Shown: positions 36,268 to 54,552 of the stretch, in pieces
Numbering within the stretch: the stretch's first letter is position 1
How the letters are laid out: the number at the start of each line of letters is the position of its first letter
Made by a program: the position numbers and the translations under genes
Notes under the pieces: generated by a model
Databases searched by the model: none
Told to the model about the DNA's origin: nothing
Seen by the model: the letters and a program-made list of their open reading frames with translations, nothing else
Assembly (NCBI RefSeq): GCF_000365425.1
Contig: NZ_AQOV01000001.1
Location: 682,001-746,000 of the forward strand
DNA length: 64,000 nucleotides
DNA from: Methylomonas sp. MK1
GTDB taxonomy: Bacteria > Pseudomonadota > Gammaproteobacteria > Methylococcales > Methylomonadaceae
Direction: 5' to 3'

Positions 36268-37491
36268 TTATTTGTATTCAGGTATCAAAGACGCCGAAAT
36301 ACTTGATAGATAGCGATTTCCCTGATCATCGAATAAAAACAACAACCCTCCAAAGCGACTATCGGCATCACCAATAACACTGGAGAGATGTTCGATTTCC
36401 CAGACAGCATCAGATGCCATGATTTTTACAACTTTGGCTTCACCGGGGTGAATCAAATCGTTTGGTTCAATTTGCATACCGTTTGTCGCCAAATATTCTG
36501 GCGGCGTATGACTGGCATCAATTTTCATATTTGAATTAATAAAACGCACAGATCCAGTGGTAAACTCACCAATCTGCAAAGTTTTTTGACTATCGTTTTT
36601 GATTTCCACCATCATCATCATTGATCGCTGGGGAATATTGTAAGTAGCGCGTTTAATTTTTGCGTTAACCAGATCGGCTTGTTCAGGTAACGGGGGGATA
36701 AGATCCAATGAAGCTTGTAACGGTATGGTTTCCGGATACTGACTGTTTGTCACAAAATAACCGCTCAAGACAATGACAGGAACCGCGACAAGTATCGCCT
36801 TAGCCAGATTTTTATCTTTAGGAGTTACCAATTTATCTTCTTCGCCCTTATTCACCATGGCATAGCGTGGAATAAACAACGGACGTCGAACCCACCAAAC
36901 CAACCAGGCTATTCCCAGAATCATCCACAGCATATGCCAACGAACACCGTTGGCAGTGCCGTAGGTTTCTAAATTGATCATTTCTCCCTTGACAGTTTCG
37001 ACATTGTTTGTGAACGCATTGGCATTACCGGTAATCTCAACCCATTGCCCAGGTCCCGCAACATTACCTGTATCTATGATATTAAACGAAGGATGAATGT
37101 GATAACGCCCAGGAATTCTGGCCTTAAGCTTCATTTTGAACTCATAATCACGACCAACTTTTAGGGGTAATGAGTTCAAATGGGCTTCGCCGTTGATCCA
37201 CCGTTCTTTACGGAGAAATACTGGACCAGGAGCGATGACACCCAAATAAGCGGCTTCTGGCTTTGGAAGACTATTAGGCCAATCTTCTGCAACATGAACT
37301 TTACCGGTTATGGTGAGTTCATCATTAACAGCAACCGTACTAGCTGACCAGTTAACGTCATACCATTGAACCGTTCGCATGCGGACAAAAGGCTCTAAAG
37401 AACGTTCACCGTGAGCCCAAGCAGTTGACGTTGAAAGAAAAAGCCCACTAAGACAGATGGATGAAAAAACAAATAACTTCAATAGTTTCAT
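36268..37491 (-). CDS. pxmB: pXMO subunit B (PmoB/AmoB family)
   Basis: The 407-residue protein starts MKLLKLFVFSSICL after AGGAG; the longer frame begins at a GTG in front of it. The signal peptide should cleave at TAWA-HGE, exposing His27. With His131 and His133 in GRYHIHPSFNI it reproduces the CuB ligands of PmoB (His33, His137, His139 in Methylococcus). Two cupredoxin-like domains flank two spans (HMLWMILGIAWLVWWV and AILVAVPVIVLSGYFV). The substrate of pXMO is not established; methane or ammonia-like oxidation has been suggested for the family. Confidence 0.93.
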   Translation of the reverse strand: MKLLKLFVFSSICLSGLFLSTSTAWAHGERSLEPFVRMRTVQWYDVNWSASTVAVNDELTITGKVHVAEDWPNSLPKPEAAYLGVIAPGPVFLRKERWINGEAHLNSLPLKVGRDYEFKMKLKARIPGRYHIHPSFNIIDTGNVAGPGQWVEITGNANAFTNNVETVKGEMINLETYGTANGVRWHMLWMILGIAWLVWWVRRPLFIPRYAMVNKGEEDKLVTPKDKNLAKAILVAVPVIVLSGYFVTNSQYPETIPLQASLDLIPPLPEQADLVNAKIKRATYNIPQRSMMMMVEIKNDSQKTLQIGEFTTGSVRFINSNMKIDASHTPPEYLATNGMQIEPNDLIHPGEAKVVKIMASDAVWEIEHLSSVIGDADSRFGGLLFLFDDQGNRYLSSISASLIPEYK

Positions 37492-37501
37492 GTTTTTTCT
37501 C

Positions 37502-38245
37502 CTATACACGTTTCAGGTAACGGACAGTGGCAAAGGCTTTACCGATATACCAACCTGCGGCATAAACCAGGATGCAGAGTAGCGCTGCAAAAAAGGCGGA
37601 TAAAGGAGCGGCCATCTGGCCATATGTTCGTAATGTGCCTCGTTCTATGATGCGTAGATATTCCGGCATACCCGCCCGTAAGTATTCAAAACCAAATTGA
37701 TCGGCGATGGTTTGCAATCCACCTTGCCATTCAATTGGAACATGGAACATAGCAAAAATAGGCCAGTTAGTTGGATAGAATAAAAGCGCAAAAGAAGCGC
37801 CCCCTGCAATCGCAGTCACTAGAAAACTAGGTGACAACATCAAAATAGCATCCAAAACTAAGGCGCTAGGAATCATGGTGGCTGGTAGCACAAAATTTAG
37901 TGGGTAATTGGTCCAAATTTGATAGGCGGTCACGCGAGTGATCCACATGCCCAGCATTAAACCCACTACTGATAAAGTTGCACCCATAGGCAAACGAAAA
38001 TGGGTCCATAATACCGATTGCACTGCTGCGGGCCAGGCAATCATCAGAACGGGCGTCACAAGCGGCCAATATTGCCGGTCTTTCCAATCGAGCCAAAAAT
38101 CCCAGTCGCCCACCGTTAGCATGAAATGCAGATGATAAGAGCCAATATATAAAAATCCGGCTAACACCAAGATTAGATAATCATAAATCCTGGAGACCGT
38201 GGCGGTTTCTTTATCAAAACCGGTGGATACGCTAATTGTTGACAT
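37502..38245 (-). CDS. pxmA: pXMO subunit A (PmoA/AmoA family)
   Basis: The 247-residue protein has six or seven membrane spans. The segment GDWDFWLDWKDRQYWPLVTPV covers the diagnostic GDWDFW site used to amplify pmoA/amoA genes. It is the first gene of the operon, with 10 bp to pxmB. A perfect TGTACCG-TT-CGGTACA palindrome lies 34 bp upstream of the start. Gene order pxmA-pxmB-pxmC and the divergent pmoA sequence are the hallmarks of the pXMO group described in Methylococcales. Confidence 0.94.
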   Translation of the reverse strand: MSTISVSTGFDKETATVSRIYDYLILVLAGFLYIGSYHLHFMLTVGDWDFWLDWKDRQYWPLVTPVLMIAWPAAVQSVLWTHFRLPMGATLSVVGLMLGMWITRVTAYQIWTNYPLNFVLPATMIPSALVLDAILMLSPSFLVTAIAGGASFALLFYPTNWPIFAMFHVPIEWQGGLQTIADQFGFEYLRAGMPEYLRIIERGTLRTYGQMAAPLSAFFAALLCILVYAAGWYIGKAFATVRYLKRV

Positions 38246-38278
38246 AATTCACTCCTCGTCGCAATTTGCAACATTATT

Positions 38279-38294
38279 TGTACCGTTCGGTACA
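38279..38294. promoter_or_regulatory. Probable TetR operator upstream of pxmA
   Basis: TGTACCGTTCGGTACA has 7-bp arms and a 2-bp centre, 34 bp before the pxmA start. Near-identical palindromes precede the tetR gene (39459-39474) and the membrane-protein gene (61038-61053). A half-site occurs at 38692-38707 ahead of the truncated tetR. Confidence 0.7.
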
Positions 38295-38334
38295 TTTTGG
38301 CGCAAAAAAAACGCCTGAATATAACAAGCACTTA

Positions 38335-38664
38335 CTAATCTAAATCAATCAATGCATTAGATATAATATGACTAACCGAATTCATGGGAAGAGTTTCGCT
38401 TCCCGTCGCCAGTAAACCGTAAAATAGACCAGTTAGAAAATCAGCGAGTGATTCAGGATCTTTATCGGTTGAAATTTCCCCTGAATTTTGCCCCTTGATA
38501 ATCGCCGACTTAAAACCTTTTTTAATTCCTCCAAGACCCTGCTCAAAGTACTTAGCAATTTTTGGATCTTTCTGCCAGAAAAAAAAATGAACAAAACAGT
38601 TATAGAGATTGGACGTCATCGTAGCTTGAGTTACTGCGTCTTTAGCTAAAAAAATCTGTGTCAC
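38335..38664 (-). CDS. TetR C-terminal domain without DNA-binding domain
   Basis: The 109-residue protein aligns with the second half of the neighbouring TetR protein (WQKDPKIAKYFEQGLGGIKKGFKSAIIKGQ.....FLTGLFYGLLATGS...ISNALIDLD). No helix-turn-helix is encoded upstream in any frame, so it is either a remnant of an upstream duplicate or a functional short protein that could bind the effector or form inactive heterodimers. It lies between tetR and pxmA, preceded by a half-operator. The expected start is not certain. Confidence 0.6.
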   Translation of the reverse strand: MTQIFLAKDAVTQATMTSNLYNCFVHFFFWQKDPKIAKYFEQGLGGIKKGFKSAIIKGQNSGEISTDKDPESLADFLTGLFYGLLATGSETLPMNSVSHIISNALIDLD

Positions 38665-38863
38665 GAAAAGTCCTCACGCATTGCGCCATTCTGTACCGTT
38701 TGGTTTTTTTGGTGCGCATAAATATATAAATATTCAGTTAATAAATGCCGTTTTTAAGGTATTACTTCATTAAGATTCACATATTGATTATCTCCTTGTC
38801 GCTTATTTATATCGACTAGTACAGTATTATTACAAAAACATCTATTTTTTAGTTTATTAAAAA

Positions 38864-39442
38864 TCAATCCAGCAGGATAAGTGCATTTGAAATAACCTTT
38901 TCTAAAGTTTTACGATCAGGGTTGGCGCTACCCATAACTTGCAAACCATAAAAAATACCAGTAAAAAAATATGCGAGCGAGTCGGAATCTTTATCAGCAG
39001 CAATTTCCATATCTTTTTGACCTCGAATGATGACCTGACGGAAAGCATCTTCGACTTGTTTGATACCGCCTTCAACTTCTTCAGATATTTTTGCGTCAGT
39101 TTGCCAAAACTCCAACGCAGTTTTTCCAAACATGCAACAACGCTTGTCTTCAATGGCCCTATCCATAACTCTAACCAAAATCCGCTCAATCGCGTTTTTG
39201 GCAGGTAAACTTGCCATGATATCGGCTATTTCGCGCACCATAGCTCGCTTACTTCTATAAAGTTTCAGCGCATCTAAAAATAGCTCATGTTTGCTACCAA
39301 AGGTTGCATAAAAACTTCCTTTTCCTATGCCCATGTTGTTCAAAAGGTCACTCAGAGAAGCTCCTTTATACCCTTTATCCCAAAAAACATACATCGCTCT
39401 AGTAAGAGCTTCTTGAGTATCGAATTCTTGATATCTTGCCAT
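38864..39442 (-). CDS. TetR-family repressor, likely regulator of pxmABC
   Basis: The 192-residue protein has a full TetR HTH (ALTRAMYVFWDKGYKGASLSDLLNNMGIGKGSFYATFGSKHELF) and a C-terminal effector domain with ITGIFYGLQVMGS-type features. A CC pair (Cys102-103, KRCCMFGKTAL) is in the position where NemR/AcuR-like relatives carry reactive cysteines. Its own promoter contains TATACCATTTGGTACA 17 bp upstream, matching the palindrome ahead of pxmA. Autoregulation and control of pxmABC are inferred from these shared sites. The effector is unknown; a reactive electrophile is one option. Confidence 0.85.
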   Translation of the reverse strand: MARYQEFDTQEALTRAMYVFWDKGYKGASLSDLLNNMGIGKGSFYATFGSKHELFLDALKLYRSKRAMVREIADIMASLPAKNAIERILVRVMDRAIEDKRCCMFGKTALEFWQTDAKISEEVEGGIKQVEDAFRQVIIRGQKDMEIAADKDSDSLAYFFTGIFYGLQVMGSANPDRKTLEKVISNALILLD

Positions 39443-39458
39443 AAAACTTAAATTTTAA

Positions 39459-39474
39459 TATACCATTTGGTACA
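39459..39474. promoter_or_regulatory. TetR operator at the tetR promoter
   Basis: TATACCATTTGGTACA differs from the pxmA palindrome at three positions (second G to A, central G to A, C to T) and lies 17 bp upstream of the tetR start. It supports autoregulation. Confidence 0.65.
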
Positions 39475-39540
39475 GAATCTACACTATATTATCAGCCATG
39501 TCAATCAATCTGAGCATTTTTTATCGGCGTTCATAAGTCA

Positions 39541-39715
39541 ATTGAAGTCGACGGCAGGCAGCTGCGAACGTCTTTGTTGGTCAGCGCCGTTTCATTGCAC
39601 CATCGGATTTCGCCGCCTTCAGCCTTAGCTTGGGCGGCAATCACAGGATAGTGTTCTTCAGCCTAGCTTTGACGGCTTCCGGACGTTGTTCGTAGGCTTT
39701 CTTGATCGGCTTTTA
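39541..39715 (-). pseudogene. IS630-family transposase remnant
   Basis: Reading the minus strand with one frameshift gives KAYEQRPEAVKARLKN followed by YPVIAAQAKAEGGEIRWCNETAL. This matches the segment around the second catalytic region of IS630 transposases (EAV..W.....P.I...AKAEGAEI.W.DE.GL), with the key Asp replaced by Asn. No ends were found. It is one of several dead transposase scraps that separate the pxm and cofactor regions. Confidence 0.55.
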
Positions 39716-39748
39716 CGGCGTGAAACCCTAGTGTTTAGGGCATTTACA

Positions 39749-39934
39749 TTACCAAAGCTTATTGACATTTCTTGGCGGATTGCAGCCTGGGCATTGAAAA
39801 CCGGATGGCCATCGGGCCTGAAGTAACGCTTCGGCGCACTGGCTTTCAGTGCCGTACTGCTTCATGAAATCCATCAAGCTGAAGCCTTTTTGAAATTGGA
39901 TCGGGTTTTTTTCATGGCATGGATCTCCAGGCAA
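39749..39934 (-). pseudogene. IS1595-family transposase N-terminal remnant
   Basis: The fragment NPIQFQKGFSLMDFMKQYGTESQCAEALLQARWPSGFQCPGC carries the zinc-ribbon start of IS1595-type transposases (ISXO2-like), and stops soon after the first CxxC. Catalytic sequence is missing. It lies directly beside the IS630 scrap, so this interval is a graveyard of insertions. Confidence 0.6.
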
Positions 39935-40022
39935 GTCAAGGCTTCAGCTCGACTAACCGAATGGTCAAAAGTTGCTGTGGGTCGTGGGTAATCAGGAAAA
40001 GTTATGTATTTCCCAAAGCGGG

Positions 40023-40450
40023 TTATTGACTTATCAATTCCATCAATGTGCTCATACGAATAACGCATTGGGGAAGAATTCCTCCCACCGCAAGCGCGAA
40101 CCAAACTCTAATGACGAAAGCGTAATGCAACAACTCCTCGCGAAACCAAAATGTATGCCCCCACTCATTGAAGCCAACGGCAACAAAAATGATAAATGAC
40201 CCGAGAACGGCAAGTGTTAAAGGCAGAGAAATTCCTTTTGCAAATAATGGTAAACAAGTTCGCGCGTAAAACCACGATGCAGAACCCATGATAGTGTAGA
40301 ACAGAAAACATAAATAAAATTCAACTACATGATTAGCAGTAAAAATACTGTCCCAAATTGCCGCCTGATGCCATGCATTATCTTGTTCAGCAAAAAGCTT
40401 CCTGCCCAATAAACAGCAAATGTATATATGCTAATCCACATGGTCAAAAC
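40023..40450 (-). pseudogene. Decayed second pxmC
   Basis: The minus strand encodes TMWISIYTFAVYWAGS, then after a 1-bp frameshift AEQDNAWHQAAIWDSIFTANHVVEFYLCF through to MELISQ-stop, matching pxmC residues from about 113 to the end. The region equivalent to NEWGHTFWFREELFGAYMH has lost the FGAYM residues, so the last copper-ligand spacing is destroyed, and the N-terminal 110 residues are absent. It must be non-functional. It shows that a second pxm locus once existed or that part of the cluster was duplicated. Confidence 0.85.
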
Positions 40451-42850: not shown

Positions 42851-44143
42851 ATGCGTAACATGATAGATAACGACATTCTTCATCTAAGCAGACCAGGTTG
42901 CAGTGACGAGCATGATCCGACAGCAATAACTGTGGATGTTGCACAGCAGTCCATTATAGATTGTGTCAAACCATTAGCTAGTACGGAGCAAGAACGATTA
43001 CCGTTGCGACAATCCATTGATCGCGTCTTGGCTGAAGATATTATTGCTGAAATGAATGTCCCCCCTTATGACAATTCGGCGATGGATGGGTTTGCCTTGC
43101 ATGCCGATGGTATACCGCAGAACGGGACGGTCACATTAAAGGTAGTTGGAAATAGTTTTGCCGGTCATCCATTTTTTGAGGGTTGTACAAGCGGCGAGTG
43201 TGTTCGCATAATGACGGGTGCAGTGATTCCGGCGGGTTGCAACACTGTAATCCCGCAGGAGCATGTCGAACTGCTCGGCGCAGAAAGCATTAGAATCGAT
43301 GGTCGTGCGAGACTAGGAGAAAATGTCCGATTCGTTGGCGAGGATATTCGTTTAGGGCAAACTGTGTTGACTTGTGGTCGACGATTAACGGCGGCAGATT
43401 TAGGGCTGTTATCTTCCTTAGGCATCAATAATGTTGCAGTAATGCGGCGCTTGCGGGTAGCCTTTTTCTCCACCGGTGATGAATTGCAGACAGTTGGGGA
43501 AGCCTTACAGCCAGGACAGATTTATGATAGCAATCGATATACGCTGTTTGGAATGTTGAGCCGCCAGCATTGCGATATAACTGATCTGGGCGTGATTGGC
43601 GACGATCCCATGCAAGTACGCAATACATTGCAATTAGCTGCGAAGAGTCATGATGTCATTATCAGCAGCGGCGGAGTGTCAGTCGGCAAAGCCGATTATA
43701 TATATCAAGTGTTGAACGAATTAGGCGACATTATCTTTTGGAAGGTGGCGATGAAGCCAGGACGACCATTAACCTTTGGCCGCCTGCAACAAGCATTGTT
43801 TTTTGGTTTGCCAGGCAACCCTGTAGCGGTAATGGTAAGTTTTAGCCAGTTTGTGCAGCCGGCCCTGCAGCGTTTTGGTGGCGAAATCACGCGTCCGCCT
43901 TTAATTTTACGAGCGGTGACCAGTTCACTTTTAAGGAAGCGAGCGGGGAGAACAGAGTACCAGCGTGGCATTTTGAGTCAGGCGTCTGATGGCGAGTTGA
44001 CAGTATGCAAGACAGGTGAGCAAGGCTCCGGAATTTTACGTTCTATGTCGCAAGCCAACTGTTTCATAGTCTTGACCGCCGATCAAACCCGAGTGGAAGC
44101 TGGTTCAACGGTAATCGTGCAACCTTTTGCTAGTTGGCTATAA
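42851..44143 (+). CDS. moeA: Molybdopterin molybdenumtransferase MoeA
   Basis: The 430-residue protein has all main MoeA signatures: VPPYDNSAMDGFA, RIMTGAVIPAG, SGGVSVGKADYI, MKPGRPLTFG and GLPGNPVAVM. It inserts molybdate (or tungstate in some organisms) into adenylylated molybdopterin. It is the only plus-strand cofactor gene here; the others run towards it on the minus strand. Base composition is closer to the host genes than that of moaC-A. Start could alternatively be the fourth codon. About 30 extra N-terminal residues precede the usual start of homology. Confidence 0.93.
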   Translation: MRNMIDNDILHLSRPGCSDEHDPTAITVDVAQQSIIDCVKPLASTEQERLPLRQSIDRVLAEDIIAEMNVPPYDNSAMDGFALHADGIPQNGTVTLKVVGNSFAGHPFFEGCTSGECVRIMTGAVIPAGCNTVIPQEHVELLGAESIRIDGRARLGENVRFVGEDIRLGQTVLTCGRRLTAADLGLLSSLGINNVAVMRRLRVAFFSTGDELQTVGEALQPGQIYDSNRYTLFGMLSRQHCDITDLGVIGDDPMQVRNTLQLAAKSHDVIISSGGVSVGKADYIYQVLNELGDIIFWKVAMKPGRPLTFGRLQQALFFGLPGNPVAVMVSFSQFVQPALQRFGGEITRPPLILRAVTSSLLRKRAGRTEYQRGILSQASDGELTVCKTGEQGSGILRSMSQANCFIVLTADQTRVEAGSTVIVQPFASWL

Positions 44144-44233: not shown

Positions 44234-44315
44234 GGTCGAGTAGCCCAAAGGAATCGCACCTTCAGGCTATCACATATCACGCAACGGTACGTGAATATCT
44301 CGATTCATACCGCTC
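44234..44315 (-). ncRNA. Group II intron 3' end remnant (domains V-VI)
   Basis: The minus strand of 44281-44315 reads GAGCGGTATGAAT.....ATTCACGTACCGTTGC, a domain V-like hairpin. It is followed towards 44234 by AGCCTGAAGGTGCGATTCC and TTTGGGCTACTCGACC, resembling the standard 3' end of bacterial group II introns. No maturase ORF remains. Only this tail is left, next to an IS6-family scrap. Confidence 0.5.
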
Positions 44316-44430
44316 TTATCGTTCAGTCATTCCGGCGAAGGTAATATGCCAATGTGCGAACAGGCCTGAGTTTTGCAGTGCTATCTTTTCATTCCGACCG
44401 TGAAAACTATCACCTCATAAAAAAATGAAG

Positions 44431-45845: not shown

Positions 45846-46778
45846 TCACTTTTTTACCCAGCGTTTTTCTTCATCATGTCCGCCACCCCACAACATGGGG
45901 AAAGCATGTAAGAGACCAGGGAAAAGCGCTTCCATACTTTCTTGCGCGCCTTTGGAACTTCCGGGTAAATTAATAATTACTGTTTTGCCGCGGATACCGG
46001 CTAGTTCGCGTGATAACATTGCATAAGGTGTGCGTTCTTTACCATAGCGGCGTATAGTCTCAACTAAACCGGGCGCCTCTTTTTCGATGACGTTAGCCGT
46101 TGCTTCCGGAGTTATATCTTTAGGACCAAAACCCGTTCCACCGGTTGTTATAATCAGATCAATATTTTCATCTGCCAGTTGCCGCAAGCGATTTGATATT
46201 TGGTCTGAATCATCAGGTATAATTTCATAGACCGGAACCGAGAGCTCTTTATCTTCCAAAAATAATTTGATGATTTTTCCAGATGTATCTTCGCGATTTC
46301 CAGCATATGTTGAATCAGAAATAACAAGAACAGCCGATTTTAATGGTTCAGCAAAATATTCTTTAAAACTGCTTTTCCCGCCCTTTTTCTTAACCAGCCT
46401 TATACAAGAAAAAGAGATATTGTCATCTAAAGGTTTAAGCATATCATAGACATTTAATAGCGCGCCCGTAACTGCAGCCATAGCTTCCATTTCAACACCG
46501 GTTTTCCAGATTGCTTTTACTTCCGCTGAAATTTTTATAGTGTCTTTTCCGATATCAAAATTTATATCAACCCAATCTAAAGGTAGGGTATGACAAAAGA
46601 TGATCCAGGATGCAGCATTTTTTGCAGCGGTTATACCTGCTGCCCGTGCAACCTGTAAAACATCCCCTTTAGGGACAGTTTTTTCAGCCACCCGTTTTAT
46701 TGTTTCCAAATTAGCTGTCAAAATTCCTTCGGCTTTTGCATATCTTAATGTATTAAATTTTGGACTAACATCAATCAT
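45846..46778 (-). CDS. moaCB: Bifunctional molybdenum cofactor protein MoaC-MoaB/MogA
   Basis: The 310-residue fusion starts at MIDVSPKFNTLRYAKAEG after AAGGA. Residues 1-150 are MoaC (KGDVLQVARAAGITAAKNA, CHTLPLDWVDINF, VEMEAMAAVTGALLNVYDMLK), which makes cyclic pyranopterin phosphate with MoaA. The rest is a MogA/MoaB adenylyltransferase-like domain (AVLVISDSTYAGNREDTSG, LIITTGGTGFGPKDITPEAT, LPGSSKGAQESME). MoaC-MoaB fusions are usual in Bacteroidota and a few others, so the cassette may have been acquired. It is the last gene in the minus-strand moa operon. Confidence 0.92.
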   Translation of the reverse strand: MIDVSPKFNTLRYAKAEGILTANLETIKRVAEKTVPKGDVLQVARAAGITAAKNAASWIIFCHTLPLDWVDINFDIGKDTIKISAEVKAIWKTGVEMEAMAAVTGALLNVYDMLKPLDDNISFSCIRLVKKKGGKSSFKEYFAEPLKSAVLVISDSTYAGNREDTSGKIIKLFLEDKELSVPVYEIIPDDSDQISNRLRQLADENIDLIITTGGTGFGPKDITPEATANVIEKEAPGLVETIRRYGKERTPYAMLSRELAGIRGKTVIINLPGSSKGAQESMEALFPGLLHAFPMLWGGGHDEEKRWVKK

Positions 46779-46893
46779 TTTGTAATCCTTGACTCTTAAA
46801 TTATTTATTTTTTGCATTTTGTTGAACATACAAACGATCAGAAAATTATATTTTCAACTGACCTTACAATTTCTGAAAAAATGTTCTAAAAAG

Positions 46894-47334
46894 CTAATCC
46901 TGAACCCAGCGCACAGATTTATCTTCCATAATTTCTTTTTTCCAGATGGGAACTTTGTGTTTAATATCTTCAACAATCTGTTCCATCGCTTTAATACTTT
47001 CTTTACGATGCCCAGATGAGCAAAAAACAAAAAGTGATAACTCTCCAGTTTTTACCAGTCCAGTACTATGAAATATGTGCACGCAATTTAATGGCCATTT
47101 TTCAAAGGCTTCTTCACGAATTTTTGCAAAAACTTTGTTGGCCATATCCCCATAAGCTGAGTATTCAATTCCAGCTACATGTTTACCTACTTTTTCATCC
47201 GCACGTACTTGACCGAGAAAAATAGAATGGGCACCTATGCCATGATTAGAGTTATGTGTTGCTATTTGCTCACCGATAAAAACCGGATCAATCGCACCCT
47301 GGACAAAATAATTTTTATCTTTCATTGTTCTCAT
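46894..47334 (-). CDS. moaE: Molybdopterin synthase catalytic subunit MoaE
   Basis: The 146-residue protein has the MoaE core: GAHSIFLGQVR near the start, FHSTGLVKTGELSLFVFCSSGHRKE and DIKHKVPIWKKE with the active-site lysines. It converts precursor Z to molybdopterin using the MoaD thiocarboxylate. It overlaps moeB by four bases (ATGA). A second in-frame ATG three codons later is also possible. Confidence 0.93.
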   Translation of the reverse strand: MRTMKDKNYFVQGAIDPVFIGEQIATHNSNHGIGAHSIFLGQVRADEKVGKHVAGIEYSAYGDMANKVFAKIREEAFEKWPLNCVHIFHSTGLVKTGELSLFVFCSSGHRKESIKAMEQIVEDIKHKVPIWKKEIMEDKSVRWVQD

Positions 47335-48483: not shown

Positions 48484-48717
48484 TCAGCCCCCAGCAAAGG
48501 GTGGCATAATTGCAACTATATCGTTATCAAAAAGACGGTGATTGTCTTCAACCATTTGCTGATTTACAGCCATTCTATAGGTATAGTCTATTAAGTCTGG
48601 ATAATTTGTGATTAATTTTCTCTTTAAATCAATCATATTATCCGTATCTTGAATCGTCAGCATGTTCTTCCCCACCACATCACTCAGAACACCAAAAAAA
48701 ATTACATTAATTTGCAT
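48484..48717 (-). CDS. moaD: Molybdopterin synthase sulfur carrier MoaD
   Basis: The 77-residue ubiquitin-fold protein ends in the required Gly-Gly (IMPPFAGG), with INVIFFGVLSDVVGK at the start. Its C-terminal glycine is adenylated by MoeB and converted to the thiocarboxylate used by MoaE. It is directly upstream of moeB in the same operon. Confidence 0.92.
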   Translation of the reverse strand: MQINVIFFGVLSDVVGKNMLTIQDTDNMIDLKRKLITNYPDLIDYTYRMAVNQQMVEDNHRLFDNDIVAIMPPFAGG

Positions 48718-48939: not shown

Positions 48940-49980
48940 TCATCCACCTATCTGTGCCATTGAAAGATGTTTTTTTGAAAAATGAACTATTTGCTGTGTT
49001 CGCTGTTCCGATTCAAATCCGTCTTTTGCCCTTTTGGCCACGGCCTCTCCAATTGCCGTTTTTATTTCCTGATCACTTTTCCCTGAACGTAGCATGTCTT
49101 TTAAATTTATGGCGCCATGATCATAGAGACAGGTTTTGAATGTACCGTCGGGAGTGAGCCTTAAACGACTGCATGTTGAACAGAATGTTCTGGAATGGCC
49201 GGCGATGATGCCGACTTTTCCTCTAAATCTGGGGATTCCAAAAATTCGGGCAGTTGAACTCATTTTAAGATGTTCGATCATTTCTGGGAAAAAATTCTGC
49301 AACGTGCTGATAATTTCTTCTGCAGAATATATTTCGTTTGAAAAACACCCCCCATTAAATGACATTTGTTCAATAAAACGGACTTCGACTTTATTGCTTT
49401 TGGCTAACATCGCAAAATCAACAATTTCATTGTCATTGACGCCTTTGAGAACCACCATGTTCAATTTTACGTTCAGATCTGCTAGCAGAATTTTATCAAT
49501 GTTATTCCACACCCGTTCAAAATCATCACGTCGGGTAATGTTATAAAAAACGTCTCGCTTCAATGAATCAAGACTGATGTTTATACTGCCTGATTTTATT
49601 TTTTGAAACAATGGGATGGTATCTTCTAAAAAATAGGCATTCGTTGTTAAATTGATTGTTTCCAGTTTTTCATATTGGTTTATTCTGGTTAAAAAATCAG
49701 GCAGACCTTTACGAACAAAAGGCTCGCCACCGGTAATACGCACCTTGGTTACACCTAAATCCAGAAAGAGTCCAAGAAGATGTTCCATTTCCTGAAAGCA
49801 CAAAATATCATCACGCGCTTTAAGATCAATACCCTCCTCTGGCATACAATAAGTACAACGAAAATTGCAACGGTCGGTAACGGCAAGCCGCAAATAATTT
49901 AAATGGCGCCCCTGGGGATCAATCAATTGGGAACCTGTTGAATTTTCTGGATTTGTTGTATGTAAGTAAGTCACACTCAT
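48940..49980 (-). CDS. moaA: GTP 3',8-cyclase MoaA (radical SAM)
   Basis: The 346-residue protein has the radical-SAM CxxxCxxC site (CNFRCTYC), RITGGEPFVRKG, ISLDSL, and the second [4Fe-4S] site FCSTCSRLRLTPDGTFKTCLY. It ends in the conserved Gly-Gly needed for activity (AQIGG). It catalyses the first step of molybdopterin synthesis with MoaC. It heads the moaA-moaD-moeB-moaE-moaCB operon and lies immediately downstream of the molybdopterin enzyme gene on the same strand. Confidence 0.95.
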   Translation of the reverse strand: MSVTYLHTTNPENSTGSQLIDPQGRHLNYLRLAVTDRCNFRCTYCMPEEGIDLKARDDILCFQEMEHLLGLFLDLGVTKVRITGGEPFVRKGLPDFLTRINQYEKLETINLTTNAYFLEDTIPLFQKIKSGSINISLDSLKRDVFYNITRRDDFERVWNNIDKILLADLNVKLNMVVLKGVNDNEIVDFAMLAKSNKVEVRFIEQMSFNGGCFSNEIYSAEEIISTLQNFFPEMIEHLKMSSTARIFGIPRFRGKVGIIAGHSRTFCSTCSRLRLTPDGTFKTCLYDHGAINLKDMLRSGKSDQEIKTAIGEAVAKRAKDGFESEQRTQQIVHFSKKHLSMAQIGG

Positions 49981-50048
49981 GTTACTCCTTTCCTAGTATA
50001 GGAGGCTTTGCTATTTCCGGCAAAACCTTATCAGCCATGAACCCTATA

Positions 50049-50087
50049 TAGTCATACTTAATAGTCATACTTAATAGTCATACTTAG
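50049..50087. repeat. Three 13-bp tandem repeats upstream of moaA
   Basis: TAGTCATACTTAA is repeated three times head to tail (the last copy ends in G), centred about 90 bp upstream of the moaA start. It may be a binding array or a simple slippage repeat. The surrounding 49981-50497 gap holds no gene that I recognise. Confidence 0.5.
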
Positions 50088-50497
50088 GTAGGCTCGAAGT
50101 TAATTTAAATAGTGCGTAAAACTATACAAAAATATTTTCACTGATCGTCTATCTTAAAAATATAGAAAATCAATGTCATATGCTGTTTGTTTTTATTTAG
50201 AGTCAGGCTTTTTGGGCTTTACATACTTTTTTATGTCCGAATTTCATAAGCTGCCAACAAGGATAAATTATCGAGCTCATGCTAATGTTTACGATTAATG
50301 ACAAGCAATTATTGTTGGTAAATTTATGATCTTACAACTTATCGGCTCGACGCTCTTCAAGATAGGAAAAAACGATTTAGAATAGTCGGTGAATAGAGGC
50401 TATCATTCAAATCGAAATGATAGCTCTCATCTTCTTTATCAAAGCTTTGTTTAAAGCTACTTTTAAGTCTGATTACCCTGTACGTGCTACAAAAATT

Positions 50498-52729
50498 TTA
50501 TATTGCATAACTTGTCCCTTCTGTTCCGTCCTCCACTTTATAAACTTTGCAAGCCAGTCCTCTGAGTTGGAAGTTACCTTGTTCTTTATCACAGTATTCG
50601 TCAGAGTCATGAAGGATGACCGCATCCGCCGATTTCCAGAGACTCGATAACGCCGCTCCTGGTTCTTCACTTCCTGTTGTTTCCGGGTACCACCAGCCAT
50701 GAGGAACCCTGACCACGTTAGGATGCGTGTCGTTGCTGAGCCACGACCTGAGTTTTATTCTTTTTCCGCTAGTTGATTCCACCCATGCCCAATCTCCATC
50801 CGACAGGTCCAAATCGTACGCCGTATCAGGATGAATTTGCATACGAGGGTCCGGCTCACGGCCACGCAGCTCTTTAATAGACCGGCCAAGGCCAAAACTG
50901 TGAAACCAATAGTTTTCTCGCATCCCGGTAAAAAAAGTCAATGGATGCGACTTAGCCAACTCAGGTTTCCTTACATGGCTATCCGGTGGCTCAATCCAGC
51001 TTGGTAACGGATCATAACCAAGCTCTTCGAAAATGCTTGAATAGAGCTCGACTTTCCCGCTAGGAGTGCCAAAGCCTGTCTGTTCGTACTTCTTGAAACC
51101 GAGTTCAGGGGCAGACGCTCGATCTTGGGTTGATAATTTTTGCCATGTTAAACCTGCTGGTGCCAACCGTTCATCGTAGGCCTCTTCCATGCTTTTCCAT
51201 GGCCAATCTTTTTCCTGTCCTAGACGGACGCCAAGCTCACGCCATAACATCCAGTCGTGCATACACTCTTCTGGCGCCTCCACCGCTTGCTCTCCTCCTT
51301 GATAGATTGGAATCCAATCCCAGTAATTAAACAAGTTCGGCCTTTCCAGCCAATGGGTGGCCGGCAAAATATAATCGGCGATTTGGGCCGTGGGTGACTT
51401 AATAAGATCCATGACAACTAACAGATCCAGATTCATCAACCCTTCGTAAATGTGAGTAGTGTTGGGGTAACTGTTTAAGGTGTTGTTACATTGCGATATA
51501 AGTGCCCTCAAGCGGTAAGGCTTGCCAGTTTTCATTGCCTCCCACATGCTTGCAGGATGCGCCATTGCGCCGCCGGATACCTGGTTTGAATATTTCTTGC
51601 CCCAGACCTTTTCCATTGCTGGGCCGGTCTTTTCGAGTGTTTCCCAGCTCAAGAGCTTAAAGCGATCTACACCGAGTTGTTTCTTGCGTTGTTCAGGAGA
51701 TAGCCTCTCATTGAGTTCGAATTCATCATCCGATGAAATTTCCGGATGGTACCCCATCAACAATTCGCCTCCGGGTACATCGAGATTACCGGTGATGGAT
51801 CTCAATATGGTTAAGGCTCGCAAAGTCTGAGTGCTATTGGCATGATGATCAGGCACTGCTCCCCAGGGGATCACAGCCGGACCAGTAGTAGCATACATAC
51901 GGGCAGACTCACGAATCTTATCCGCTGGTGCTCCAGTTATTTCTGATGCCCACTCCGGAGTGTAATCCTTCACTCTTTCAGTGAGTTGTTCAAAACCAAC
52001 CGTCCATTTTTTTACAAATTCTTTGTCATAGAGGTCTTCATAGATGATCACATTGATCCAGGCCAGTAAATAGGCGCTATCCGTAGCAGGTTTAACCTGC
52101 AGAAAAATATCCGCTTGATCACTGTAGCTATTACGGCGTGGATCTGTAACGATTAGTTTTGCTCCTTTATCCAGGGCATCCTTAATCCACAGATACTCAG
52201 CCGTCCATCTTTGCGGACCCGGAGCGTGGCCTAAAAGTACGATGCATTTGGTATTATGAAAGTCTGGAAACTGCCAAAAACCGTAAGTCGCTTTACTGGG
52301 CACTGTGGAATTGGCTAAACACACGTATCCCGTCCAAGTCCAGTTCGGACTCCCCAGTAAGTTCATAAATCTTCGTGAGGCCGCACCAGCATTAGAGCTC
52401 CAACCATAAGTGCTGCCGATTGTTTCCGGCCCATCTTCGGCTATCAACTTCTTCATCTTATCGGCAATTTCATCTAAAGCTTGTTTCGTGCTAATTTGTT
52501 CCCATTGACCCGAGCCGCGCTCACCGACTCTTTTCAGCGCATGCGTTAATCGGTCTGGGTGGGTAATGTATTTATTTGCGTTAGCTCCCTTGATGCAGAT
52601 CGAATTCGGAGTAAGGGGGTGATCTGGGTTTTTTTTGATCGATTTCACCTTACCGTCTTCAACGGTGACAAGAAGTCCGCAATTGATATCGCAGGTACTG
52701 CAGATGACCCATTTCGTTTCTTTGCTCAT
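50498..52729 (-). CDS. Acetylene hydratase-like Mo/W-bis-MGD enzyme
   Basis: The 743-residue DMSO-reductase-family protein starts at MSKETKWVIC after AGAGG. The [4Fe-4S] cysteines are Cys10, Cys13, Cys17 and Cys45. Asp14 directly after Cys13, Lys47, a metal-ligand Cys137 (YVCLANS) and Trp175 occupy the places of Asp13, Lys48, Cys141 and Trp179 that form the acetylene hydratase active site of Syntrophotalea (Pelobacter) acetylenica. RFMNLLGSPNWT, INVII.E.LYDKEFV, PTAQIADYILP..HWLERP and SGKVELYSSIFEELGYDPLP extend the resemblance. No Tat signal is seen, so it is cytoplasmic. Formate dehydrogenase-like function is the main alternative. Confidence 0.78.
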   Translation of the reverse strand: MSKETKWVICSTCDINCGLLVTVEDGKVKSIKKNPDHPLTPNSICIKGANANKYITHPDRLTHALKRVGERGSGQWEQISTKQALDEIADKMKKLIAEDGPETIGSTYGWSSNAGAASRRFMNLLGSPNWTWTGYVCLANSTVPSKATYGFWQFPDFHNTKCIVLLGHAPGPQRWTAEYLWIKDALDKGAKLIVTDPRRNSYSDQADIFLQVKPATDSAYLLAWINVIIYEDLYDKEFVKKWTVGFEQLTERVKDYTPEWASEITGAPADKIRESARMYATTGPAVIPWGAVPDHHANSTQTLRALTILRSITGNLDVPGGELLMGYHPEISSDDEFELNERLSPEQRKKQLGVDRFKLLSWETLEKTGPAMEKVWGKKYSNQVSGGAMAHPASMWEAMKTGKPYRLRALISQCNNTLNSYPNTTHIYEGLMNLDLLVVMDLIKSPTAQIADYILPATHWLERPNLFNYWDWIPIYQGGEQAVEAPEECMHDWMLWRELGVRLGQEKDWPWKSMEEAYDERLAPAGLTWQKLSTQDRASAPELGFKKYEQTGFGTPSGKVELYSSIFEELGYDPLPSWIEPPDSHVRKPELAKSHPLTFFTGMRENYWFHSFGLGRSIKELRGREPDPRMQIHPDTAYDLDLSDGDWAWVESTSGKRIKLRSWLSNDTHPNVVRVPHGWWYPETTGSEEPGAALSSLWKSADAVILHDSDEYCDKEQGNFQLRGLACKVYKVEDGTEGTSYAI

Positions 52730-53302: not shown

Positions 53303-54190
53303 ATGGACACTAACATGGAAATACAACAAATACGTTACTTTCTGGCAGTCTGTGATAAGAGTTCATTTACCCGTGCAGCGCAATCGACCTATGTGGCACA
53401 ACCTTCCCTGACACAAGCAATAAAGAAACTGGAAGAAGAGCTAGGCGGCGATTTGTTTATTCGAGATCGTAGCGGTTGCCAACTTACACCTCTGGGGCGT
53501 TTCGTCGAGCCAACCATGCGGCAAATATTTCGCGAAACGCAAAGTATCAAAGCCGATGCCATTCGATTCAATCGTTTGAACACAGTACCGTTGCGTATCG
53601 GCGTAATGAATACCATTTCTGCGCAATATTTGAGTCCTTTTTTTACTGACTTTCAGCAAGAGCGGCCACATGTAGAGTTGGAATTGATAGTGGATTGCGA
53701 AAGCAATTTGTTGAAGTTACTCGATGACGATACTCTTGATTTGGTCATCAGCGCACCAAGCACGCCACCGATTGGACACTATCATTCGTTAAAGCTTTAT
53801 GAAGAACGCTATGTAGTGGTCTTCAACGACAAACACCGTTTCAATCAATTTGAGCAAATCGATTTGGTAGCGATTCAGCAAGAACCCTACCTTGATCGTC
53901 TCAACTGCGAGTTACGCGAAGAGTTACGAAACGTCTGTCAAGATAAACAAATCAATCTTTATGCCGCATACAGGAGTAATAGTGAGGAATGGATATTGAG
54001 TATGGTACGGGCCGGAATCGGTATAGCATTGATGCCTGAATTCACCATACCCAAAAAAGCGGACAACCTTAATTTTCGTTATCTGTCCGATCCTGAAATA
54101 CTTCGCACAGTACAAGTTTTTTTTCAACCATCATCGACAGCAAACCCTGAAGTTAATCAGCTACTGGAAAAAATACGCGTGAATTTTTGA
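53303..54190 (+). CDS. LysR-type transcriptional regulator
   Basis: The 295-residue protein has an N-terminal winged HTH (MEIQQIRYFLAVCDKSSFTRAAQSTYVAQPSLTQAIKKLEEELGGDLFIRDRSGCQLTPLG) and a periplasmic-binding-like effector domain with LRIGVMNTISAQYLSPFF and MVRAGIGIALMPEF. It is divergent from the acetylene hydratase-like gene. The 25-bp CTAT/ATAG motif, which contains a T-N11-A dyad of the LysR kind, is found at its own start and before its probable targets. The effector is unknown. The second ATG (53315) is a good alternative start. Confidence 0.9.
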   Translation: MDTNMEIQQIRYFLAVCDKSSFTRAAQSTYVAQPSLTQAIKKLEEELGGDLFIRDRSGCQLTPLGRFVEPTMRQIFRETQSIKADAIRFNRLNTVPLRIGVMNTISAQYLSPFFTDFQQERPHVELELIVDCESNLLKLLDDDTLDLVISAPSTPPIGHYHSLKLYEERYVVVFNDKHRFNQFEQIDLVAIQQEPYLDRLNCELREELRNVCQDKQINLYAAYRSNSEEWILSMVRAGIGIALMPEFTIPKKADNLNFRYLSDPEILRTVQVFFQPSSTANPEVNQLLEKIRVNF

Positions 54191-54295
54191 CCTTCGTATT
54201 CGATATTTGGCAATAAAACCGAACTCATAAATACCAGTAGTAGAGCTTATTTACCTTGGCGACACTGCCTACTTCTCTTTAAATGACGGTGATTG

Positions 54296-54442
54296 TACTC
54301 AGGGCGGGGCGAAATTCCCCACCAACGGTATCCAGGCCAATCCGGGGAATCCGCGAGCGCCGCAGTTTCCGAAATTGGAAATCCAGGTCAGCAGATCTGG
54401 TGAGATGCCGACGCCGACGGTGATAGTCTGAATAAAAGAGTA
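54296..54442 (+). ncRNA. FMN riboswitch (RFN element)
   Basis: The sequence has the invariant parts of the RFN element in order: TCAGGGCGGGGCGAAATTCC, CCACC.ACGGT, CCGCGAGCGC, GGTCAGCAGATCTGGTG, GCCGACGGT and ATAGTCTGAAT. The outer P1 helix is TACTC (54296-54300) with GAGTA (54438-54442). These riboswitches turn off riboflavin synthesis or transport genes when FMN is plentiful. The expected downstream gene, ribB, is only a fragment here. Confidence 0.93.
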
Positions 54443-54552
54443 CAGCGTAAGGTGGCCCATTCACATACCGTGTTTGGAAGATTTATTCTTGCTCGTTAAT
54501 TTTTTTTCAGCCCTGATCCTGGTGTTTCCATAACTTTTTTCGGAGCATTACC

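What the first reader, a model, noticed from the sequence alone, without database searches (positions are those of the whole stretch)
50498..52729. An acetylene hydratase-like enzyme in a methanotroph-like genome
The gene keeps residues that set acetylene hydratase apart inside the DMSO reductase family: Asp immediately after the second cluster cysteine (Asp14), Lys47 two after the fourth cysteine, a metal-ligating Cys137 and Trp175. It is also similar along its whole length. Acetylene is a mechanism-based inhibitor of particulate and soluble methane monooxygenases, so a hydratase could protect the cell or use acetylene as carbon via acetaldehyde. Known acetylene hydratases come from anaerobic acetylene fermenters, so an aerobic methanotroph version would be new.
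Basis: partly seen in the sequence, partly recalled or inferred. Interest (0 to 1): 0.92.

Follow-up and report, generated by a model that had tools for sequence, protein, structure and literature searches.

The report
Methanotroph acetylene hydratase with cofactor genes
A methane-eating bacterium carries a probable acetylene-hydrating metalloenzyme, together with its own set of cofactor-making genes and an RNA switch of a type linked to tungsten, which could protect or feed cells whose key enzyme acetylene poisons.

The parts
50498..52729 (-). ahy-like gene, 743 aa, W/Mo-bis-MGD and [4Fe-4S] enzyme of acetylene hydratase subfamily, clade A
49969..50111 (-). Moco/Tuco riboswitch aptamer (RF01055) lacking the P3 hairpin, between ahy and moaA, overlapping the moaA ribosome-binding site; only RF01055 match found in the genome (150 of 235 first-look candidates scored)
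   Evidence: 44.0 bits, gathering 36
48940..49980 (-). moaA, GTP 3',8-cyclase (second copy in the genome, 36% identical to the other)
48484..48717 (-). moaD, ThiS/MoaD sulfur carrier, 77 aa
   Evidence: PF02597
47331..48467 (-). moeB with rhodanese domain (MoaD adenylyltransferase); start taken at the ATG, the open frame runs to a TTG at 48515
46894..47334 (-). moaE, molybdopterin synthase catalytic subunit
45846..46829 (-). moaCB fusion
   Evidence: NF002947, 372.9 bits, cut-off 285
42851..44143 (+). moeA (second copy; metal insertase), found with at least 80% identity near ahy in 9 of 13 informative loci
53303..54190 (+). LysR-type regulator, divergent from ahy; possible but unproven regulator

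Best explanation
The gene encodes an acetylene hydratase of a small clade with members in aerobes: by analogy with Pelobacter Ahy a cytoplasmic monomer, with a metal-bis-MGD centre ligated by Cys137 and a [4Fe-4S] cluster (Cys10, 13, 17, 45). Asp14 would activate water, and a hydrophobic pocket (Ile15, Leu138, Trp175, Trp289, Trp470) would hold acetylene, giving vinyl alcohol and then acetaldehyde. The cell makes the pterin for it with an extra moaA-moaD-moeB-moaE-moaCB(-moeA) set, whose moaA start lies in a riboswitch of the P3-lacking type that tracks with tungsten cofactor; tungsten is therefore the somewhat more likely metal. Physiologically it would remove acetylene, an inhibitor of methane oxidation, and/or feed acetaldehyde into C2 metabolism. 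Shown: gene, homology, fold, motif, clade, cluster, riboswitch match, purifying selection. Inferred: substrate, metal, dedication of the cofactor set, role.
Against: No activity has been measured for any clade-A protein in anything I read. That DSM 44186 and I71 degrade acetylene is recalled; the two papers found on DSM 44186 do not mention acetylene. R. opacus acetylene hydratase is reported as molybdenum-dependent (PMC7858054), which sits badly with tungsten for the whole clade. The R. opacus aldehyde dehydrogenase and symporter are 26-32 kb away with transposase and integrase genes between. Clade A is sister to clade B, most of which is uncharacterised; catechol dehydroxylases are also close to acetylene hydratase (PMC7028382) and could not be placed in my tree. 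P0122, 82% identical to Pelobacter Ahy, has Cys at 472. Five of 28 clade-A proteins lack the full motif: P0005, P0006, P0007 and P0011 lack Lys48 and Trp472, and P0013 lacks its N-terminal part and has Val at 472. No tungstate-specific TupA was found with PF12849 (one protein, read as PstS-like); ModA is present. L004 has no riboswitch match. One copy is split by an insert (L070), so the trait can be lost. The Pelobacter copy P0121 was in the alignment used for the model.
Confidence: 0.6

Rival explanations
1. A subfamily member with a different substrate: a hydratase or dehydroxylase acting on another small unsaturated or aromatic compound. Fold, Asp and Trp residues would be shared because they are subfamily-wide.
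For: The cited residues occur in 175 of 178 clade-B proteins from many organisms unlikely all to meet acetylene; catechol dehydroxylases are described as closest to acetylene hydratase; a metallopterin ergothioneine synthase is a distant relative (27% identity).
Against: Clade A keeps the Pelobacter-like 142/472 pocket that clade B mostly lacks; clade A includes the genes of two bacteria recalled as acetylene degraders; the R. opacus plasmid also carries an aldehyde dehydrogenase and an acetate symporter 26-32 kb away.
Confidence: 0.27
2. A redox enzyme of the polysulfide/thiosulfate reductase or formate dehydrogenase type.
For: Shared superfamily; best NCBIfam models are PhsA and Fdh-alpha, both far below cut-off (297 bits against 694, 280 against 666).
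Against: The protein falls inside the acetylene hydratase subfamily with 100/99 support; 2E7Z beats 2vpw by 344 bits; no electron-transfer subunit among the 19 neighbouring ORFs scanned.
Confidence: 0.08
3. A sub-reading of the best explanation, with odds given hydration: the enzyme is an acetylene hydratase but uses molybdenum, and the P3-lacking riboswitch does not report the metal.
For: R. opacus activity reported as Mo-dependent; ModA but no TupA found; two of 19 organisms with P3-lacking RNAs had no tungsten genes in the 2008 survey.
Against: P3 absent or reduced to a few bases in all eight aptamers found; Pelobacter Ahy is a tungsten enzyme (PMC12096430, passages).
Confidence: 0.35

Closest known systems
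Pelobacter (Syntrophotalea) acetylenicus acetylene hydratase Ahy, PDB 2E7Z
   Different: 42% identity, separate clade (AU test rejects an exclusive grouping), Leu for Ile142, two-residue shorter Ile113 segment, methanotroph host, linked extra cofactor genes and riboswitch
Bradyrhizobium sp. I71 molybdopterin protein (P0012)
   Same: Clade A, 50% identical, same pocket motif (Asp13, Lys48, Leu142, Trp472)
   Different: Different subclade (A1), Met for Ile14; genomic context not seen
Rhodococcus opacus DSM 44186 plasmid pRop44186_a gene (WP_120661552.1)
   Same: Clade A, 45% identical, same motif, also on a replicon with its own moaA/moaD/glp/moeZ/mobA within about 25 kb
   Different: Plasmid-borne, different gene order, aldehyde dehydrogenase and acetate symporter 26-32 kb away; Mo-dependence reported for the species
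P3-lacking Moco RNA (Tuco riboswitch type), RF01055
   Same: Position upstream of moaA, core aptamer, no P3
   Different: Found here in a methanotroph next to an acetylene-hydratase-like gene

Membership tests
Acetylene hydratase subfamily (DMSO reductase family) | Four Fe-S cysteines, Cys metal ligand and Asp next to the second cysteine | tested here: met
Acetylene hydratase subfamily (DMSO reductase family) | Phylogenetic placement with 2E7Z against other DMSO reductase family members | tested here: met
   60-row subfamily 100/99, clade A 98/96; four outgroup rows only
Pelobacter-type Ahy (specific orthologue) | Exclusive clade of clade A with Pelobacter Ahy | tested here: not met
   AU p 5e-57
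Acetylene hydratase (function) | Hydrophobic ring I14, I113, I142, W179, W293, W472 (list recalled) | tested here: inconclusive
   I14, W179, W293, W472 kept, Leu for I142; Ile113 segment shorter; pocket geometry not measurable
Acetylene hydratase (function) | Acetylene to acetaldehyde activity in reduced state | not testable with these tools
   needs purified enzyme
Catechol dehydroxylase | Clade with E. lenta Dadh / Gordonibacter Cldh | not tested
   no such sequence in hand
Tuco riboswitch type of RF01055 | Match to RF01055 above gathering score | tested here: met
   44.0 against 36
Tuco riboswitch type of RF01055 | P3 stem absent | tested here: met
   alignment; absent or reduced to a few bases in 7 further loci; L004 has no match
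Tuco riboswitch type of RF01055 | Response to tungsten cofactor | not testable with these tools
   needs reporter assay

The most novel reading that the evidence does not exclude
Some aerobic methanotrophs carry a self-contained tungsten acetylene-hydratase module: the enzyme, its own pterin-making genes, and a tungsten-cofactor-sensing riboswitch. It protects methane monooxygenase from acetylene or turns acetylene into a carbon source, and the clade it belongs to is the unidentified gene family behind aerobic acetylene use.
Probability: 0.35. Interest if true: 0.85.

Novelty: new variant of a known kind. Interest (0 to 1): 0.72.

Why it matters
A 2021 paper states that no acetylene-transforming enzyme of an aerobic acetylenotroph had been characterised (PMC7858054, passages). 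Clade A is a small, testable gene family with cultured hosts. In a methanotroph it would mean a cell that removes the classic inhibitor of its own key enzyme, so acetylene-block assays could fail in some communities. A P3-lacking riboswitch beside the gene also makes a direct prediction of tungsten use in an aerobic methanotroph. In the held library no paper joins 'acetylene hydratase' with 'Methylomonas' (0), and none joins 'acetylene', 'Methylomonas' and 'acetylene consumption' (0). Seven hold 'acetylene hydratase' with 'methanotroph'; six were listed and none by its title reports such a gene, and I read passages of one, PMC4653830. Most subscription papers are not in that library.

Tried and rejected
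Rejected: (a) the idea that Asp14, Lys47, Cys137 and Trp175 alone prove acetylene hydration. (b) Pelobacter-type orthology. (c) A tungstate-specific transporter: PF12849 gave one protein whose sequence I read as PstS-like; other tungstate transporters were not sought. (d) R. opacus and methanotroph cofactor genes as one inherited block: not shown. moaA, moeA/glp and moeB/moeZ are 35-38% identical, the R. opacus moaA is nearer the genome's other moaA (39%) than the window's (35%), and gene order differs; but ahy itself is only 45% identical, so a separate pairing is suggested, not proved. (e) Clade-A genes elsewhere in Pseudomonadota: two of 398 sampled genomes besides the window's own matched, and both resemble clade-B proteins best. 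(f) G233's 39% protein lies outside the subfamily in the quick tree, on a long branch. Rows dropped: for the careful tree I left out four long-branched rows (L015, L001, L002, L039) and added four. The counts rest on the best 120 hits of each of two searches (211 distinct proteins plus two queries), not on all relatives. Five of 14 ahy loci (L006, L007, L011, L012, L067) were not searched for the riboswitch. Pocket geometry could not be measured from the model.

Papers: PMC7858054, PMC12096430, PMC10100899, PMC4653830, PMC9516567, PMC7028382, PMC9229178, PMC8892189 and PMC11170663: passages only; PMC2408646: abstract and passages; the rest: search listings only. Rosner 1997, the Bradyrhizobium I71 report, the 2018 acetylenotrophy review and Seiffert 2007 were not read (three ids not held); what I say of them beyond quotations in those passages is recalled.

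Full report
Gene and genome. The ORF lies on the minus strand at 50498-52729, 743 aa from an ATG preceded by AGAGG. The genome held as G000 has three genes of the methane/ammonia monooxygenase A family, one of them in the window at about 37502-38245 beside a subunit-B gene, so a methanotroph is right. A record titled Methylomonas methanica R-45363 carries a protein 99.9% identical. The genome has three molybdopterin-oxidoreductase-family matches, this gene among them.

Active-site residues. In 213 aligned proteins (211 database hits, the query and 2E7Z), D13, K48, C141, W179 and W293 together are kept in 23 of 28 clade-A, 175 of 178 clade-B and 0 of 7 other proteins. They mark the subfamily, not the substrate. 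Adding an aliphatic residue at 142 and Trp at 472 gives 23 of 28 in clade A and 4 of 178 in clade B; those four are 2E7Z, its 99% neighbour P0121, P0069 and P0172. In clade B, Ala stands at 142 in 111 of 178 and Phe or Tyr at 472 in 104 of 178. Against this, P0122, 82% identical to Pelobacter Ahy, has Cys at 472, and the query lacks two residues around Ile113. That these positions line the Pelobacter pocket is partly recalled; Asp13, Cys141, Trp179 and Trp472 are named in PMC12096430 (passages), which calls Asp13 specific for the subfamily and says that the other members have not been characterised biochemically. A 2023 survey uses 'AH' as a family name for homologues across bacteria and some archaea (PMC10100899, passages).

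Tree. In a 68-row maximum-likelihood tree the subfamily (60 rows) has 100/99 support and splits into clade A (22 rows, 98/96) and clade B (38 rows, 100/100), which holds Pelobacter Ahy. A grouping of clade A with the Pelobacter Ahy group alone is rejected (p 5e-57); A1 and A2 without A3 as one clade is not (p 0.395); both groups were named after the tree was seen. Clade A contains the methanotroph group, Bradyrhizobium sp. I71, Nevskia soli, a Sporichthyaceae MAG and the R. opacus DSM 44186 plasmid protein. A search with the latter found 40 clusters at E <= 1e-200 among 8000 scored candidates, which suggests a small clade. PMC7858054 (passages) names R. opacus as an aerobic acetylenotroph with a molybdenum-dependent activity and says no such enzyme of an aerobic acetylenotroph had been characterised. 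That strain DSM 44186 and Bradyrhizobium I71 degrade acetylene is my recall; the plasmid record gives soil from Tuebingen and the two papers found on the strain do not mention acetylene.

Neighbourhood. Downstream of ahy on the same strand lie moaA, moaD, moeB, moaE and moaCB; moeA is further on, on the other strand. Of 14 distinct methanotroph-type loci (window included), one (L006) ends at a contig edge; in the other 13, moaA follows ahy in 13, moaD in 12, moeB-moaE-moaCB in 11, and a moeA at least 80% identical lies within the stretch held in 9. L071 is the same contig as L004 and counted once; window, L067 and L011 are near-identical, as are L005 and L012; L007 is from an oddly labelled MAG and ends soon after moaCB; L004 has only a 31% moeA relative. 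The genome has a second moaA (36% identical) and a second moeA (47%) elsewhere, so this is an additional set. The G+C of moaA to moaCB, 35-39% against 47.8% for ahy, 48.3% for moeA and 46.5% for the window, suggests a foreign origin. The R. opacus plasmid carries its own moaA, moaD, glp, moeZ and mobA within about 25 kb of its homologue, with an aldehyde dehydrogenase about 26 kb and a cation acetate symporter about 32 kb away and several transposase and integrase genes between. Its moaA, glp and moeZ are 35-38% identical to the window's; with the different gene order this suggests a separate pairing of ahy with cofactor genes, but ahy itself is only 45% identical, so it is not proof.

Riboswitch. 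Between ahy and moaA, at 49969-50111 minus, lies an RF01055 aptamer: 44.0 bits, gathering 36. It is the only match found in the genome, 150 of 235 first-look candidates having been scored. Of nine ahy loci examined (of 14), eight have it at the same place, six above gathering (window 44.0, L008 66.2, L009 51.7, L010 43.4, L069 51.7, L070 65.9), two below (L005 30.9, L068 32.1 bits), and L004 has none. In all eight the P3 hairpin is missing or reduced to a few bases. In the 2008 survey (PMC2408646, passages), 17 of 19 organisms with P3-lacking RNAs carried genes indicative of tungsten cofactor. That is a correlation, not a binding result. No TupA was seen with PF12849; ModA is present.

Selection and spread. 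Between the window and five other loci, ahy has dN/dS 0.028-0.093 with dS 0.25-0.84, while moaA, moeB, moaE, moaCB and moeA have 0.10-0.26. Protein identity stays at 91-97% although fourfold sites are 58-84% identical (loci L004, L005, L007-L010 and L012; L011 is nearly identical throughout). The enzyme is under strong constraint. In the window's family 13 of 237 genomes match at 1e-60, 12 of them at 92-100% identity, one of these in two pieces with 96 and 93%; in the order 13 of 311 match at 1e-150. In the split copy an insert whose ORFs read like a transposase (not scanned) lies between the halves.

Mechanism and role. By analogy with 2E7Z, reduced metal with bound water, Asp14 as base and a hydrophobic pocket would hydrate acetylene to vinyl alcohol and then acetaldehyde; the mechanism is disputed even for Pelobacter. 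Acetaldehyde could be oxidised by aldehyde dehydrogenases: the genome has two matches to the R. opacus enzyme, at 35 and 30%. Acetylene inhibits methane oxidation (PMC7858054, passages), so protection is an attractive role, but carbon use is equally open.

Verdict. The finding is real and richer in context than stated, though weaker in its cited residues. Acetylene hydration about 0.6; tungsten, given hydration, somewhat more likely than molybdenum; physiological role unknown. New variant of a known kind.

Noticed in passing
window 36268-40409: pxm-like monooxygenase genes (subunit B 36268-37509, subunit A 37502-38245) with only a partial AmoC-domain ORF (40023-40409, model positions 117-243 of 245) upstream; the third subunit looks truncated.
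   Followed up: partly
window 54291-54447 (+); L004 4298-4463 (-): An FMN riboswitch (RF00050, 74.2 and 71.2 bits) directly after the LysR gene, with no ORF of 60 aa or more on its own strand up to 55300 in the window: it looks like an orphan riboswitch.
   Followed up: partly
L007: A contig labelled Thermoplasmata archaeon MAG carries the methanotroph ahy-moa cluster, ahy at 96% identity: probably misbinned.
   Followed up: no
L070 11394-14871: The ahy copy of genome G157 is split at about residue 435 by an insert whose ORFs read like a transposase; moaA and moaD remain, moeB-moaE-moaCB were not found in the stretch held.
   Followed up: partly
proteins P0005, P0006, P0007, P0011: A clade-A subgroup lacking Lys48 and Trp472 (Leu/Ile and Met/Asp instead), one named acetylene hydratase by its source: possibly another substrate.
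   Followed up: no
L041, L063 (R. opacus pRop44186_a 602000-654303): Plasmid region with the clade-A gene, ferritin-like protein, FdxA, cofactor genes, aldehyde dehydrogenase, 2-oxoacid:ferredoxin oxidoreductase, acetate symporter and several transposases: a candidate mobile acetylene-use island.
   Followed up: partly
window 44235-44317 (-): Weak match to a group II intron (29.9 bits, gathering 40) between moeA and moaCB.
   Followed up: no
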